From: a virus | DNA: 22,912 bases | Reading direction: 5' to 3' (one strand) | Virus record (IMG/VR): IMGVR_UViG_3300025890_000171 | Location: 1-22,912 of that record | Part shown: positions 8,630 to 13,470 of the stretch, one piece after another | Layout of the letters: every line of letters starts with the position of its first letter | Position numbering within the stretch: position 1 is the stretch's first letter | Made by a program: the position numbers and the translations under genes | Notes under the pieces: generated by a model | What the model was told of the DNA's origin: nothing | Seen by the model: only the letters and a program-made list of their open reading frames with translations | Database searches by the model: none

Positions 8630-9339
8630 GTTTTGCCAGTATAAATAATGCACCATTTGGTTTAGCTTTACAAAAAGGCGAAATAAACAGATTTGGTGGT
8701 ATTCATAAGTTTGGACTTAACACAGCAGTTGGAACTTCTTTTGAAACTATTTGGGATGGAAATAATACTTACACATATCCATCTTCAGCAGGAACAGCCA
8801 CAGTAACATCTTCTAATACATCAGCAGATAATGCAGGAACAGTTGAAGTTGAGGGTTTAGATGCAAATTATGATGTAGCCACAGAAACTATTACAATCGG
8901 TGGAAGTGCAGGGAGTACATCATTCATAAGAGTTTATAGAGCAGTAATGAAAACTGCTAATACTGGTAATGCTAATGTTGGTGATATAACAATTACAGTT
9001 TCAAGCACAGCAGTTGCAAAAATTCAAGCAGGATATGGGCAAAGTCTAATGTGTGTTTATACTGTGCCAAGAAATTATATTGCTTATCTTATGCAAATAG
9101 ATATAGGCAGTTCTAAAGATTTAGAAAATGAAATAAGATTTATAACTAAAGAAATATCAAATGGTAATGTATGGAATACAAGGGCATTTATTACAACTAG
9201 AGGTGGCTTTATGGAAAAGAATTATGTCATACCAGTTAAAATATCAGAAAAAACAGATATTGAATTAATTGCTAAAGCTAGTGCAACATCTTCAATTTCT
9301 GGTGGGTTTGAACTTGTTTTACAAGATTTACAAGAATAA
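8626..9339 (+). CDS. Probable virion surface or head protein, 237 aa
   Basis: A 237-residue protein rich in Thr, Ser, Gly, Ala and Val with little charge, as in beta-sandwich virion proteins. Residues about 45-90 (YPSSAGTATVTSSNTSADNA...) look like an exposed beta/loop region. The C-terminal half (GYGQSLMCVYTVPRNYIAYL, then TTRGGFMEKNYVIPVKISEKTDIELIAKA) is a pattern I have seen in marine phage structural proteins, often beside the portal. It may be a decoration or head fibre protein. It starts within the previous gene's stop (ATGA) and has an AAAGGA ribosome site. No enzymatic motif is present. Confidence 0.6.
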   Translation: MSFASINNAPFGLALQKGEINRFGGIHKFGLNTAVGTSFETIWDGNNTYTYPSSAGTATVTSSNTSADNAGTVEVEGLDANYDVATETITIGGSAGSTSFIRVYRAVMKTANTGNANVGDITITVSSTAVAKIQAGYGQSLMCVYTVPRNYIAYLMQIDIGSSKDLENEIRFITKEISNGNVWNTRAFITTRGGFMEKNYVIPVKISEKTDIELIAKASATSSISGGFELVLQDLQE

Positions 9340-9362
9340 CCTTATAAGAAAATGATGCACAT

Positions 9363-9482
9363 ATGGAAAAGCCAAAAAAAATATGTGTAATTTGTAAGGT
9401 GTTTTTAATAGAGGTTTTGAAAGATGTTTATAAATGCCCAGTATGTAAGGCAATAGTTAACGAAAGATTAAATGATAGGTAA
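9363..9482 (+). CDS. 39-aa zinc-ribbon-like miniprotein
   Basis: A short reading frame MEKPKKICVICKVFLIEV..., with C8-x2-C11, 13 residues, then C25-x2-C28 (KCPVCKA), and a Lys/Arg-rich end. The two CxxC knuckles fit a zinc ribbon. It fills most of the otherwise empty 181-base gap between two head genes. No good ribosome site lies before ATG 9363, which lowers confidence; coupling to the preceding gene, 23 bases away, is possible. It could bind DNA or another protein. The chance of two well-spaced CxxC pairs in a random 39-codon frame is low. Confidence 0.5.
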   Translation: MEKPKKICVICKVFLIEVLKDVYKCPVCKAIVNERLNDR

Positions 9483-9520
9483 TAATCCTGGGAAAAACCT
9501 AGTAAAAACAAGGACTTAGT

Positions 9521-9808
9521 ATGGCATTATATAGAGGTAGAAACGTAGCACTAAATAAACCATTTAGATTGTCAGCAACCGAATCTAAAAGAAAAAAGTT
9601 TGGGGTTTATGTTAAGAATAAATCTACTGGTAATGTTAAAAAGGTTACATTTGGTGCTAGGGGAATGACCATAAAGAAAAACATACCTGCAAGACAAAAG
9701 TCTTTTTTAGCTAGAATGGGTGGGGTTTTAAAAGAAGTTAAAGGGCAAAAGACACTTTCACCTGCTTACTGGTCAATAAGGGCATGGAAAAAGAACTTTC
9801 CATTATAA
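9521..9808 (+). CDS. Basic 95-aa head-cluster protein
   Basis: A 95-residue, strongly basic protein: MALYRGRNVALNKPFRLSAT, a core FGVYVKNKSTGNVKKVTFGA, MTIKKNIPARQKSFLARMGG, and an end PAYWSIRAWKKNF. I recall related small proteins in head clusters of cyanophages and other marine phages, with a shared core K-F-x-V-Y-V-K-N..G-N-V-x-K-V-x-F-G and a following A-R-x-K-S-F-x-A-R; their job is not established. The fold is likely a small beta sheet plus helix. An AAGGA ribosome site precedes the ATG and the MuF-type gene starts three bases after the stop. Confidence 0.65.
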   Translation: MALYRGRNVALNKPFRLSATESKRKKFGVYVKNKSTGNVKKVTFGARGMTIKKNIPARQKSFLARMGGVLKEVKGQKTLSPAYWSIRAWKKNFPL

Positions 9809-9811
9809 AAT

Positions 9812-11602
9812 ATGTCAAGAATTTTAGAAAAATTAGCCGATCAGCATGAAGAACGTATAATAAACGTATTGTATAAGCTAGAAGATGACGTAGTTAATGA
9901 AATTACCAGAGCCACAAAAGGTAACTTAGTTTCTCAAAGATTAGCTATCCAGTTACAACCCAGACTAAGAACCATAATTGAATCTACCTTTTTAAATGAA
10001 GCTGATTTACTAATTAATGATGATTATAATAAAATAGCGAAAGAAACATTAGATACTTTTGGTAAAATGCCTATTCCTGCAAAGTTTAAGAACCTAACAG
10101 ATGTAGATTTAGCAACCATCAATGCCTTGAAAACCCAATCATTTAGTGGCTTTGAAGATATAGCAGAACGATTTCTAAAGGTAATTAATGATGAGGTTTA
10201 CCAAAGTACAATAGCAGGTAGACCATTTAACGATATGGTTAGTAATATCAAATCACATATCAATGGAGTTTATAAATCCTCAAATACTCGTGAGATAAAT
10301 GAATTAGTTGATTTTGTTAACGAGAATAAATTTGATAGTGCAAAAAAAGCACAAGTAGAAGATGCAGTAAGGAAATTGCACACTCAATATGCGAGTGATA
10401 GGGCAGGAAACAATCTAAGACGTTATGCCAGTCAGATTGCTCACGATAGTGTTATGCAGTTTCATGGGCAGTTTACAGTAGCAAAAGCAAAAGAAGCAGG
10501 ATTAAATCATTTCACATATACTGGTACATTAGTCCGAGATAGTCGTGAATTTTGTGTAAATATGCTTAATAAGACACTCACAGAAGAACAAATTAGGGAT
10601 ATGTGGAACACTAGAGCATGGCAGGGAAAATCAACTGGAGACCCTTTTATTGTAAGGGGTGGTTATAGATGTAGGCATACTTGGATACCTACAGACCCTG
10701 CATGGGGTGAAGAAACAGTAGATGAAGTGCCAGATGAACCAGTAGTTGAGGAAGTACCACCACCACCAATAAAAAAGGGTAGAAGATCAACATTAAATAA
10801 TCCAGTTAAAGAAGAAGAAATTAATATTATATCAAGTGCTTCTGTTTTAGCTGATTTAAAAAAACAAATAACTAAAAATGCAAAAGATGAACGATACCCA
10901 CTTGATGCTAGAGGGTTGCCAGTATCTAGGTTCAGAACATCAAATGTTGGAAATGTAAAAGGTATTGAAAAATTAGATGATGAAATAGCAAGTCAATTAG
11001 GTGCTATTATGAAAGAGTTAGACGATTTAGCAGAATTATATAATGTTCCAAAACTTAGGTCTATAACTGTTGATGCAAGAAAAAAATCTTTAATGTCTAT
11101 GGGTGATGGTAATTTATATATAAACCCCAAATATTTTAATAGAAAAAATGTTGATGTAAAAACACAAAGAAATTTTAGAGATGTTTTTTTGGGCAAGGGT
11201 TATTACAAAACAGATCAAGATTTAGCTAATAATTTTAAACTTGGTGATAGTGTTGCTAAAGAAACTAGACGAAATTCTAATAGTTGGAAAAGACCACACA
11301 ATGCTTTTTACTATTTTAATGAAGAAATTGATAGATTAAGAAATATATTATATCACGAATTTGGTCATCAAGTTCACCAAATGAAAAATATGAAAGCCTT
11401 AAGAACTTTTGGTTTTGGTGAATTTGACATACCAGTTGAAGATGCTTTAAGAGGAAAAAATATTGGAGGTGGAGCATCAAGATATTCTTCTAAAAATAGC
11501 AAAGAATGGTTTACCGAAAATTTTAGTTTGTTTCACATGGGTAGAGAAGAATTAGTTGACCCAAAGTTTATAGAATTTTTAGAAAATGAGGTATTAAAAT
11601 GA
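9812..11602 (+). CDS. MuF-type head protein fused to a zinc metallopeptidase domain
   Basis: A 596-residue two-part protein. Residues 1 to about 300 are a MuF/SPP1 gp7-like minor head protein: long helices, then TYTGTLVRDSREFCVNMLNKTL (236-256) and GGYRCRHTWIP (283-293). An acidic, proline-rich linker (305-320, with four prolines in a row) leads to a C-terminal domain. Here LYHEFGHQVHQM (513-524) is an HExxH site (His515, Glu516, His519), and SKEWFTENF (563-571) supplies Glu565 or Glu569 as a possible third zinc ligand. MuF proteins enter the head with the DNA and some carry toxin or enzyme domains at this end. The domain could be an injected effector or a head-processing protease. GC content falls sharply in the C-terminal half. 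Confidence 0.85.
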   Translation: MSRILEKLADQHEERIINVLYKLEDDVVNEITRATKGNLVSQRLAIQLQPRLRTIIESTFLNEADLLINDDYNKIAKETLDTFGKMPIPAKFKNLTDVDLATINALKTQSFSGFEDIAERFLKVINDEVYQSTIAGRPFNDMVSNIKSHINGVYKSSNTREINELVDFVNENKFDSAKKAQVEDAVRKLHTQYASDRAGNNLRRYASQIAHDSVMQFHGQFTVAKAKEAGLNHFTYTGTLVRDSREFCVNMLNKTLTEEQIRDMWNTRAWQGKSTGDPFIVRGGYRCRHTWIPTDPAWGEETVDEVPDEPVVEEVPPPPIKKGRRSTLNNPVKEEEINIISSASVLADLKKQITKNAKDERYPLDARGLPVSRFRTSNVGNVKGIEKLDDEIASQLGAIMKELDDLAELYNVPKLRSITVDARKKSLMSMGDGNLYINPKYFNRKNVDVKTQRNFRDVFLGKGYYKTDQDLANNFKLGDSVAKETRRNSNSWKRPHNAFYYFNEEIDRLRNILYHEFGHQVHQMKNMKALRTFGFGEFDIPVEDALRGKNIGGGASRYSSKNSKEWFTENFSLFHMGREELVDPKFIEFLENEVLK

Positions 11603-11811
11603 GTGCATTAGTGAATGAAGCAGGTGATATTTTAGAAAAAAAAATAATAACTGTTCAAGATTATAAAAGATTTAGAGAAATAGGAAGAATAATTGAAGAT
11701 GGTGATAATTTATATTATTCTAGTTATGACGAGGGTATGTTTCAAAGGTTACCAGAGATAGCCAAAAAAGAGGGTAATTATGATTGGCTAGAGCCAGAAG
11801 ATGACGATTAG
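11599..11811 (+). CDS. Small acidic protein, possible immunity partner
   Basis: A 70-residue protein with about 18 Asp/Glu against 9 Lys/Arg, ending EPEDDD. It starts on the stop of the MuF-peptidase gene (ATGA) with a GAGG site upstream, so the two are co-translated. I know no family for it. Small acidic partners next to secreted or injected toxins are often immunity proteins, and its GC content matches the low-GC peptidase domain rather than the scaffold gene after it. Alternatives are a head accessory protein or an unrelated small gene. Confidence is high that it is coding and low for the immunity idea. Confidence 0.65.
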   Translation: MSALVNEAGDILEKKIITVQDYKRFREIGRIIEDGDNLYYSSYDEGMFQRLPEIAKKEGNYDWLEPEDDD

Positions 11812-11864
11812 TTGAAAATTAAAGAAGAAGATGCTATAAAGATACTACCAATATGGAGGTTTAA

Positions 11865-12566
11865 ATGGAAGAAAATCAAGTAGAACAAACTGCTGAAACT
11901 CAAGAAGAAGCACCACAAGTACAAGAACAGCCAACCAATACATTTACCCAAGATGAGGTTAATAACATTGTTGAAAGACGATTAGCCAAAGAAAGAGGTT
12001 CTATGTATAAGAAACTGGGTGTTGAAGATTTAGATATAGCTGTAAATGCTGTAAAGACACAAAAAGACCTAGAAGAAAAGCAAAGAATTCAAAAGGGTGA
12101 GTTTGAGGAAATACTTAAAACAAGAACCCAAGAGTTTAACAAAGAGAAATCAAACTTAGAAAATCAGCTAAAAGATATTAAGATTAATAAGTCTTTATTA
12201 TCATCAGCATCAAGAAATAAAGCTATTAATCCAGACCAAGTTGTAGAACTTTTAAAAAGCGATATTAAGTTAAATGAATCAGGTAATGTAGAAATACTTG
12301 ATAAATCTGGATTAGCAAGATATAACAAAATGGGTGAACTTTTATCCACAGACGAATTGGTTCAAGAGTTCTTAACACAAAACCCTCACTTCGTTAGTGC
12401 TACCCCTAGTGGTTCTGGCTCGGTGTCAAATGTGGATAGGTCAGAACTCAACAAACCTTTAAATTTGAGTGATTTAGATATGAACAATCCAACGGATAGG
12501 AAAAAATATTCTGAATATAGAAAAATTAGAGATTCCAAACCTAGTACGATTGTTTTGAATAATTAA
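11865..12566 (+). CDS. Capsid scaffolding protein
   Basis: A 233-residue protein just before the major capsid gene. The first 25 residues are Glu/Gln-rich and probably disordered. Residues 26-50 (NTFTQDEVNNIVERRLAKER) are a motif seen in many phage scaffolds. Residues 62-110 are a charged coiled-coil stretch (KDLEEKQRIQKGEFEEILKT, FNKEKSNLENQL). A Lys/Arg-rich C-terminus (about 208-228) is the usual capsid-binding end. It should form the inner core that shapes the prohead and then leave. GGAGG before the ATG is a strong ribosome site. No separate prohead protease is visible. Confidence 0.85.
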   Translation: MEENQVEQTAETQEEAPQVQEQPTNTFTQDEVNNIVERRLAKERGSMYKKLGVEDLDIAVNAVKTQKDLEEKQRIQKGEFEEILKTRTQEFNKEKSNLENQLKDIKINKSLLSSASRNKAINPDQVVELLKSDIKLNESGNVEILDKSGLARYNKMGELLSTDELVQEFLTQNPHFVSATPSGSGSVSNVDRSELNKPLNLSDLDMNNPTDRKKYSEYRKIRDSKPSTIVLNN

Positions 12567-12582
12567 ATGACATTAAATTTAT

Positions 12583-12588
12583 AAGGAG
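12583..12588 (+). promoter_or_regulatory. Strong RBS of the major capsid gene
   Basis: AAGGAG seven bases before ATG 12596. The 11 bases ATAAGGAGTTA (12581-12591) occur again, exactly, before the tail tube gene (15322-15332). Confidence 0.8.
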
Positions 12589-12595
12589 TTAAAAT

Positions 12596-13441
12596 ATGTC
12601 TAATGAAACAACCAGTTCAACCATTTCGGAACTATACACCGAGATAGTTGCAGAAGCATTATTCGTTGCAAATGAGCAGTCAATAATGAGAAACCTTGTC
12701 AGAAACTACACTATTGTAGGTGGTGGTAAATCAGTAGAAGTACCGATTTATTCAGCAGTATCAGCATCAGCAGTAAGTGAAGCATCAGACCTTTCAAACA
12801 CAGCTATAAACCCAAGTTCAGTTACTATAACAGCATCAGAAGTTGGAATTATGACAACACTAACAGACTTAGCAAGAAATTCAGCATCAAGAAATGTTGC
12901 AGGAGATATTGGTAGATTGTTTGGTGAAGCTATAGCTAAAAAAATAGATGCAGATTTGTCAGCATTATTTACTGGCTTTTCTACCCAAAAAGGTGGTGGA
13001 GCAGGTGTAGAGTTAACAATACAAGATTTATTTGAAGCAGGTACAGAGTTAAGAACAAACAATGCACCTCAAGCCTACTATGGTGTATTTCACCCAAAGC
13101 AAATCTTTAATGTTAAAAAAGCATTAACAAATACATTTGCAGGTTCAGCTAATATTCCAGACTTAGGTAATGATGCTTTAAGAAATGGTTTTGTCGGACA
13201 AATCGCAGGAATACAAATATTTGAAAGTTCAAATGTTGCTGTAGATGGTTCTGATGACTCTATTGGTGGTGTATTCTCTCAAGATGCTTTAGGTTTAGCT
13301 ATGATGCAAGACCTCAAGATTGAATCACAAAGAGATGCTTCATTAAGAGCAGATGAAATCGTAGCCACAGCAGTTTATGGAGTTGCAGAACTTCACGACA
13401 GCTATGGTGTTAAGCTAACAGCAGATAGTTTAGCAAACTAA
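12596..13441 (+). CDS. Major capsid protein (HK97 fold)
   Basis: A 281-residue protein between scaffold and connector genes. The N-terminal helix (TISELYTEIVAEALFVANEQ), a following glycine-rich strand (TIVGGGKSVEVPIYS), the EVGIMTTLTDLARNSA segment, a long helix (DIGRLFGEAIAKKIDADLSA) and an ending QDLKIESQRDASLRADEIVA plus YGVAEL fit the HK97-like capsid fold with the E-loop near the start and the P and A domains after. There is no N-terminal delta domain, in line with a separate scaffold gene. It forms the icosahedral shell. The strongest ribosome site in the window and a terminator right behind it suit high expression. Confidence 0.92.
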   Translation: MSNETTSSTISELYTEIVAEALFVANEQSIMRNLVRNYTIVGGGKSVEVPIYSAVSASAVSEASDLSNTAINPSSVTITASEVGIMTTLTDLARNSASRNVAGDIGRLFGEAIAKKIDADLSALFTGFSTQKGGGAGVELTIQDLFEAGTELRTNNAPQAYYGVFHPKQIFNVKKALTNTFAGSANIPDLGNDALRNGFVGQIAGIQIFESSNVAVDGSDDSIGGVFSQDALGLAMMQDLKIESQRDASLRADEIVATAVYGVAELHDSYGVKLTADSLAN

Positions 13442-13448
13442 TTTAACT

Positions 13449-13470
13449 AGGGAGGGAAACCTCCCTTTTT
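13449..13470 (+). terminator. Intrinsic terminator after the capsid gene
   Basis: GGGAGG (13450-13455) pairs with CCTCCC (13460-13465) around a GAAA tetraloop, extended by an A-T pair (13449 with 13466), and is followed by a T run (13466-13470). It starts eight bases after the capsid stop codon. It probably ends or weakens head transcription, so the tail genes would be read at a lower level or from another promoter. Confidence 0.9.

What the first reader, a model, noticed from the sequence alone, without database searches (positions are those of the whole stretch)
10800..11811. Low-GC island: MuF-fused zinc metallopeptidase plus a small acidic gene, a candidate virion-delivered toxin and immunity pair
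The MuF protein carries a C-terminal HExxH domain, and the 70-residue acidic gene starts on its stop codon. Hand counts of GC per 60 bases are 27 (10381-10440) and 22 (10561-10620) in the MuF part, but 15 (10801-10860), 14 (11101-11160), 16 (11281-11340) in the peptidase part, 12 (11641-11700) in the acidic gene, and 24 (11881-11940) in the scaffold after it. The peptidase domain and acidic gene thus look like one acquired unit. MuF proteins with C-terminal toxin domains are known; a zincin with a paired acidic partner in an AT-rich marine-type siphophage would be new to me.
Basis: partly seen in the sequence, partly recalled or inferred. Interest (0 to 1): 0.75.

Follow-up and report, generated by a model that had tools for sequence, protein, structure and literature searches.

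The report
Swappable phage head peptidase and partner
A marine phage, probably of the SAR11 bacteria, carries a zinc peptidase fused to a head protein together with a small partner gene, and close relatives lack or swap the two as one block, which suggests a virion-carried weapon and its antidote.

Summary
The tail of the 596-residue head protein is a zinc peptidase domain (predicted fold, mean pLDDT 92, closest to the anthrax lethal factor catalytic domain and PPEP-1). It is followed, on an ATGA overlap, by a 70-residue acidic gene. The GC drop is real but within the range of other genes in the window.

Relatives give stronger evidence. Against one near-identical phage (L108), DNA is about 95% identical on both sides of 10770-11831 and unmatched inside, where L108 has a different zinc peptidase and a different small gene; other relatives lack the block. 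On this head-protein backbone and its sister group, 26 of 26 readable long forms have a small gene next; of 135 short forms none does (120 judged, 15 cut by contig ends). The partner family persists down to about 31% domain identity; four divergent partners match by position only.

Best reading: a MuF-type polymorphic effector with its antidote, carried in the virion. MuF toxins, including metallopeptidase ones, are already described, so the kind is known. New here: block exchange in phages without a detected integrase (an earlier survey found toxin forms only in temperate phages), only zinc peptidases as cargo in this sample, and a conserved partner family. Toxicity, inhibition and delivery are inferred.

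The parts
9812..10690 (+). N-terminal MuF-like head domain (residues 1-293), the constant backbone
   Evidence: Between portal and scaffold genes; PHROG 595 (head) E 5e-6 for the full protein, 2.2e-4 for this part; TIGR01641 SPP1 gp7 only E 0.018, below cut-off; profile-profile with MuF domains of relatives E 6.4e-4, probability 28. The assignment is moderate, not strong.
10691..10789 (+). Acidic, proline-rich linker; left edge of the exchanged block falls here
   Evidence: Identity with L108 stops at 10769; short relatives end 12-20 residues after the RGGY[RN]CR motif.
10790..11602 (+). C-terminal zinc peptidase domain (residues 327-596), M34-like
   Evidence: AlphaFold2 mean pLDDT 92.2, pTM 0.92; VIA-align Z 9.8 to the anthrax lethal factor catalytic domain, 7.4 to PPEP-1; Pfam ATLF at E<=1 in 15 of 15 members of A1, best 1.2e-5, but only 0.095 for the window's own domain, below cut-off.
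11354..11368 (+). HEFGH zinc-binding and catalytic motif (H515, E516, H519)
   Evidence: H, E, H in 52 of 52 aligned domains.
11483..11485 (+). Y558, aligned with a tyrosine of the lethal factor catalytic domain
   Evidence: Y in 50 of 52, N in 2; alignment; its catalytic role is recalled.
11504..11506 (+). E565, likely third zinc ligand
   Evidence: E in 52 of 52; aligned with the corresponding Glu; its role as ligand is recalled.
11599..11811 (+). Small acidic partner gene (70 aa, three predicted helices), candidate antidote
   Evidence: ATGA overlap; related ORF at the same place in relatives; model pLDDT 88.9; net charge -9 by direct count.
10770..11831 (.). Exchanged block: replaced or absent in close relatives
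   Evidence: DNA comparison with L108, L112 (replaced) and L115, L117, L123, L127 (absent).

Best explanation
The block encodes a virion-carried effector and its antidote. Shown by computation: an M34-like zinc peptidase domain with conserved ligand residues is fused to a head protein; its presence and type go together with a small downstream gene; and between close relatives the pair is present, absent or replaced as one unit. Inferred: the MuF-like part binds the portal and brings a few copies into the capsid; the peptidase enters the cell with the DNA and cuts a host protein early in infection; the small protein, translated in step through the ATGA overlap, binds and holds the peptidase inactive in the producing cell until it is packaged.
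For: Fold and active site. Small gene next to the domain in 93 of 102 located loci; the other nine are two contigs cut at the 3' end (L053, L066) and seven bacterial loci (L098-L104) whose frames of 42-316 residues are too short for the fusion. Small gene after 25 of 25 long MuF genes read by script (23 distinct proteins) plus one read by hand, and after 0 of 135 short ones, of which 120 have a complete longer ORF next and 15 could not be judged. Block replacement at DNA level; MuF and scaffold 98-99% identical while the domain is 59%, 36% or unrelated (L107, L109, L108). Among 88 pairs with MuF at least 90% identical, domain and partner identity go together, Spearman 0.92. The same domain sits on proteins with PF04233 above cut-off in four of six checked. 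Precedents: SPP1 gp7 is taken into the procapsid in few copies by the portal (PMC6316719, passages); 89.4% of MuF toxin genes but 25.5% of short MuF genes have a small ORF next (PMC5576092, section 8).
Against: No activity, binding or virion proteomics. The window's own N-domain reaches no MuF cut-off. No integrase or resolvase family was found in 23 records, so the usual reason for immunity, protecting lysogens, is not in evidence, although the 21 IMG/VR records may be fragments. Partners in L017, L018, L096 and L097 are not demonstrably homologous to the family. Partner and MuF identity also correlate once domain identity is held fixed (partial 0.43, against 0.57 for partner and domain with MuF fixed), so part of the association is common descent. 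A chaperone role for the small protein would give the same gene pattern.
Confidence: 0.6

Rival explanations
1. Host-takeover or anti-defence effector with a dedicated chaperone: the peptidase is injected and cuts a defence or regulatory protein, and the small protein mainly stabilises it or loads it into the capsid rather than protecting the producing cell.
For: No lysogeny genes of the two families searched were detected, so there may be no lysogen to protect; the 26 readable cargoes here are all zinc peptidases, whereas more than half of published MuF toxins are nucleases.
Against: The HEYGH peptidases have their own, unrelated small genes, as cognate inhibitors would; but cognate chaperones would look the same, and binding is untested.
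Confidence: 0.22
2. Head maturation or internal processing protease with a regulator: the domain cuts scaffold, MuF or another head protein during assembly.
For: The gene lies next to the scaffold gene; PHROG 595, which matches the N-terminal part, is labelled head maturation protease; zincin domains of polyvalent phage proteins are proposed to self-process (PMC5512222, passages).
Against: Relatives with similar MuF, scaffold and capsid lack the domain and have nothing in its place (L115, L127); 55 of the 80 loci read by script are short, and 80 of 80 kept in the HTVC111P-type group. A protease elsewhere in those genomes was not searched for.
Confidence: 0.08
3. Weapon between phages: the virion-borne peptidase acts in cells already occupied by a competitor phage that lacks the matching small protein.
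For: Near-identical phages carry different pairs, as expected of diversifying incompatibility types.
Against: No co-infection data; no orphan partner of the window's family in the nine short-MuF records searched.
Confidence: 0.1

Closest known systems
MuF polymorphic toxins of temperate phages (Jamet et al. 2017, PMC5576092; sections 7, 8, 13 read)
   Same: MuF head domain with optional C-terminal extension; 20% of 191 putative toxins with a metallopeptidase; small ORF after most toxin forms and a minority of short forms.
   Different: That survey reports toxin forms only in temperate phages; here no integrase or resolvase family was found in 23 records, including the genomes of two isolated SAR11 phages. 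The 26 readable cargoes here are all zinc peptidases.
Peptidase family M34 / Pfam ATLF (anthrax lethal factor catalytic domain; Pro-Pro endopeptidase PPEP-1); the family number is recalled
   Same: Predicted fold, HExxH, Tyr and downstream Glu.
   Different: 14-17% identity to lethal factor in the structural alignments; fused to a phage head protein; window domain below the Pfam cut-off; substrate unknown.
Tox-ALF metallopeptidase of polymorphic toxins (Zhang et al. 2012, PMC3482391, passages)
   Same: ATLF-like peptidase used as a toxin tip.
   Different: The passage seen lists PVC and type II secretion and the partner Imm-SuFu; the 14 partners scanned here have no Pfam match better than E 0.055.
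Zincin domains of polyvalent phage proteins (Iyer et al. 2017, PMC5512222, passages)
   Same: Zincin domains in phage proteins that are thought to enter the host; enzymatic fusions to MuF are mentioned as likely effectors.
   Different: Two-domain protein here, with a dedicated overlapping partner gene.

Membership tests
MuF polymorphic toxin | N-terminal MuF domain | tested here: inconclusive
   Window domain below Pfam and NCBIfam cut-offs; profile-profile E 6.4e-4, probability 28; same peptidase on PF04233 proteins above cut-off in L020, L096, L017, L064, not in L019 and L054.
MuF polymorphic toxin | Variable C-terminal domain on a conserved N-domain | tested here: met
   Short, HEFGH/HEFAH, HEIGH/HEMGH and HEYGH forms on N-domains 73-99% identical to the window's.
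MuF polymorphic toxin | Small downstream ORF tied to the toxin form | tested here: met
   26 of 26 readable long forms; 0 of 135 short forms, 120 of them judged.
MuF polymorphic toxin | Temperate phage | tested here: inconclusive
   PF00589 0 of 23, PF00239 0 of 23; completeness of the 21 IMG/VR records is not given. Two relatives lie in Sphingobium assemblies among phage head genes.
MuF polymorphic toxin | Toxicity neutralised by the cognate small protein | not testable with these tools
   Needs expression assays.
Peptidase family M34 (ATLF) | M34 catalytic fold | tested here: met
   The first 24 VIA-align rows are anthrax lethal factor or lethal toxin entries, Z 8.4-9.8; next PPEP-1, 7.4. 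Against: Foldseek alone gave no PDB match at E<=0.001, its best being lethal factor at 0.12.
Peptidase family M34 (ATLF) | HExxH plus downstream Glu ligand and Tyr | tested here: met
   52/52, 52/52 and 50/52; alignment; roles of Glu and Tyr recalled.
Peptidase family M34 (ATLF) | Curated Pfam score | tested here: not met
   12.8 bits against 27.4; hence described as M34-like, not filed as a member.
Head maturation protease | Needed for capsid assembly of the phage type | tested here: not met
   Close relatives with homologous scaffold and capsid lack the domain.

The most novel reading that the evidence does not exclude
A phage group of the SAR11 bacteria that does not lysogenise carries polymorphic peptidase-antidote pairs as incompatibility types: each virion injects its peptidase, and only a cell (or a resident phage) expressing the matching small protein escapes. 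Recombination keeps swapping pairs between near-identical phages, so the pair decides which phage wins a co-infected cell.
Probability: 0.1. Interest if true: 0.85.

Novelty: new variant of a known kind. Interest (0 to 1): 0.56.

Why it matters
The published survey tied MuF toxins to temperate phages and to lysogeny. A conserved, swappable peptidase and partner block in phages related to isolated SAR11 phages, with no integrase found, asks what an antidote is for in a phage that may not lysogenise. Isolates whose records carry the block (HTVC026P, Kolga) or lack it (HTVC111P, HTVC112P, HTVC202P) make the question testable. It also offers a compact peptidase and candidate inhibitor pair.

Tried and rejected
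GC as proof of acquisition: rejected as sole evidence, because the domain is only second lowest of 31 segments. Head maturation protease: disfavoured by relatives without the domain. Orphan partner genes: none in nine short-MuF records; HTVC026P has a weak second match at E 0.003. A search of 385 genomes of the Sphingobium seed's class with the partner alignment was empty, but no genome there was known to match, so this shows nothing; the same set with the domain alignment gave 1 of 385, the seed genome itself. Partner homology for L017, L018, L096 and L097: shuffled copies scored as high in 66, 67, 0 and 16 of 100, so only L096 is above its shuffles, and narrowly; all four remain partners by position. 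The final E-values are partly of sequences already in the profile. HEYGH domain versus the window's type: profile-profile E 1.8e-4 over 38 columns around the motif, so common ancestry beyond the motif is open; its small genes are not detectably related to the window's family (E 0.078). Small protein fold: no PDB match at E<=0.001. Foldseek of the domain: none against PDB at E<=0.001, 3 against viral models. A model of peptidase with partner was not made; the tool predicts single chains. Paper searches combining MuF with pelagiphage, with virulent phage and immunity protein, minor capsid with lethal factor, and SAR11 with toxin-immunity listed nothing on this block; the library holds only openly licensed papers.

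Full report
What is there. The window is a virus record of 22,912 bases. Its large terminase is closest to isolated SAR11 phages, 57.5% identical to HTVC026P and 56.0-56.5% to HTVC111P, HTVC112P and HTVC202P. ORF 9812-11602 lies after the portal gene and four further ORFs, and before scaffold (PHROG 2303, E 7e-13) and capsid. Its last part carries HEFGH; a 70-residue acidic ORF starts on its stop codon.

The N-domain. The window's first 293 residues reach no curated MuF cut-off. PHROG 595, a head family, matches the full protein at E 5e-6 and six of ten members of the N-domain alignment at E<=0.01. A profile comparison with the N-domains of five relatives, four of which pass the Pfam MuF cut-off (the fifth, L097, was not scanned), gives E 6.4e-4 over 215 columns, with probability only 28. 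Of six relatives scanned whole, four (L020, L096, L017, L064) have PF04233 above cut-off and two (L019, L054) do not; ATLF or Mx1 appears below cut-off in L020, L017, L064, L019 and L054. I therefore call the window's N-domain MuF-like.

The C-domain. AlphaFold2 on 52 sequences gives mean pLDDT 92.2 and pTM 0.92. VIA-align puts anthrax lethal factor or lethal toxin entries in its first 24 rows (Z 9.8 to 8.4, 170-180 residues aligned, rmsd 3.6-4.3) and PPEP-1 next (Z 7.4). H, E, H and the downstream E are in 52 of 52 sequences, the Tyr in 50 of 52.

The partner. The domain was located in 102 loci. In 93 of them a small ORF (58-81 aa) follows, from a 23-base overlap to a 1-base gap, 67 of these with the 4-base overlap. 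The nine without are L053 and L066, cut at the 3' end, and L098-L104, bacterial loci whose frames of 42-316 residues are too short for the fusion; I did not scan these for MuF. Several loci are overlapping stretches of one contig; there are 61 distinct small proteins. An iterated profile starting from the window's close group collects 56 of 61 at E<1e-3 for a database of a million (55 of them in the first round), L020 reaches 0.018, and L017, L018, L096 and L097 are not found. For L020 a profile comparison gives probability 81, above all 100 shuffles. Small protein model: three helices, pLDDT 88.9, no PDB match at E<=0.001.

One exchanged block. Against L108, the window is 94.6% identical in DNA over 9337-10769 and 95.1% over 11832-13450, with no match between; L108 has there a HEYGH peptidase and a small gene with no match to the window's. 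By protein, L107 has MuF 99%, scaffold 99%, capsid 85%, domain with linker 59%, partner 71%; L109 has 98%, 98%, 98%, 36%, 51%; L108 has 99%, 98%, 96%, only 15 linker residues matched, none. L115, L117, L123 and L127 skip from the MuF end to the scaffold. Over 60 unique complete fusions, 144 pairs have MuF parts at least 70% identical but domains at most 45%.

Presence and absence. 25 are long (23 distinct proteins) and all are followed by a complete small ORF; 55 are short, 49 followed by a complete longer ORF, 5 by an ORF cut by the contig end and one by nothing before the contig end; 5 could not be read by script. One of these, L142, was read by hand: HEYGH domain plus a 69-residue ORF. Of the 26 long forms 15 are HEFGH/HEFAH, 3 HEIGH/HEMGH and 8 HEYGH. 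In the HTVC111P-type group, best 80 of 346 kept, 80 of 80 are short: 71 followed by a complete longer ORF, 5 by a cut ORF, 4 by none. Together 135 short forms, 120 judged, none with a small ORF next. These loci are related, so no p-value is given.

Lifestyle. Phage integrase and resolvase families were found in 0 of 23 records, while the controls rang in 14 and 10 of 14 genomes. Kolga is reported as a siphovirus of SAR11; the same paper says that most of its isolates behaved as if lysogenic or chronic, or with host bistability, despite lacking the associated genes (PMC8163748, passages). Two relatives sit in Sphingobium assemblies between portal and scaffold genes, so related blocks occur in prophage-like settings.

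What it means. Jamet et al. reported MuF toxins only in temperate phages, with small ORFs after 89.4% of toxin forms and 25.5% of short forms, and 20% with a metallopeptidase (sections 7, 8, 13). The present block fits that design closely, which makes the effector-antidote reading the most likely, at 0.6. The missing integrases make its purpose puzzling. SPP1 gp7 shows that a MuF protein can be carried in virions in few copies and support infection (PMC6316719, passages). Entry of the peptidase into the cell, its target and its inhibition remain inference.

Noticed in passing
L146, contig IMGVR_UViG_3300017763_001268: A third cargo form: 411-residue extension with HEYGH and a 101-residue downstream ORF of net charge 0, by eye unlike the other small genes.
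   Followed up: partly
L098, L100-L104: Bacterial zinc peptidase genes related to the domain (254-316 residues) are each followed by a gene of 459-467 residues with a similar start. Titles name Fulvivirga, Agaribacillus, Marinoscillum and Cyclobacteriaceae or Cytophagales bacteria.
   Followed up: no
L105 21400-21813 (HTVC026P gp47): Annotated as toxin-activating lysine-acyltransferase among tail genes.
   Followed up: no
L105 1904-1993: Weak second match to the partner profile in HTVC026P, E 0.003, inside a 132-residue open frame.
   Followed up: no
window 9521-9808: A 95-residue gene upstream matches PHROG 7595 (E 1.8e-13) and, more weakly, a minor head and DNA pilot family; it is 81-100% identical in nine compared loci.
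   Followed up: no
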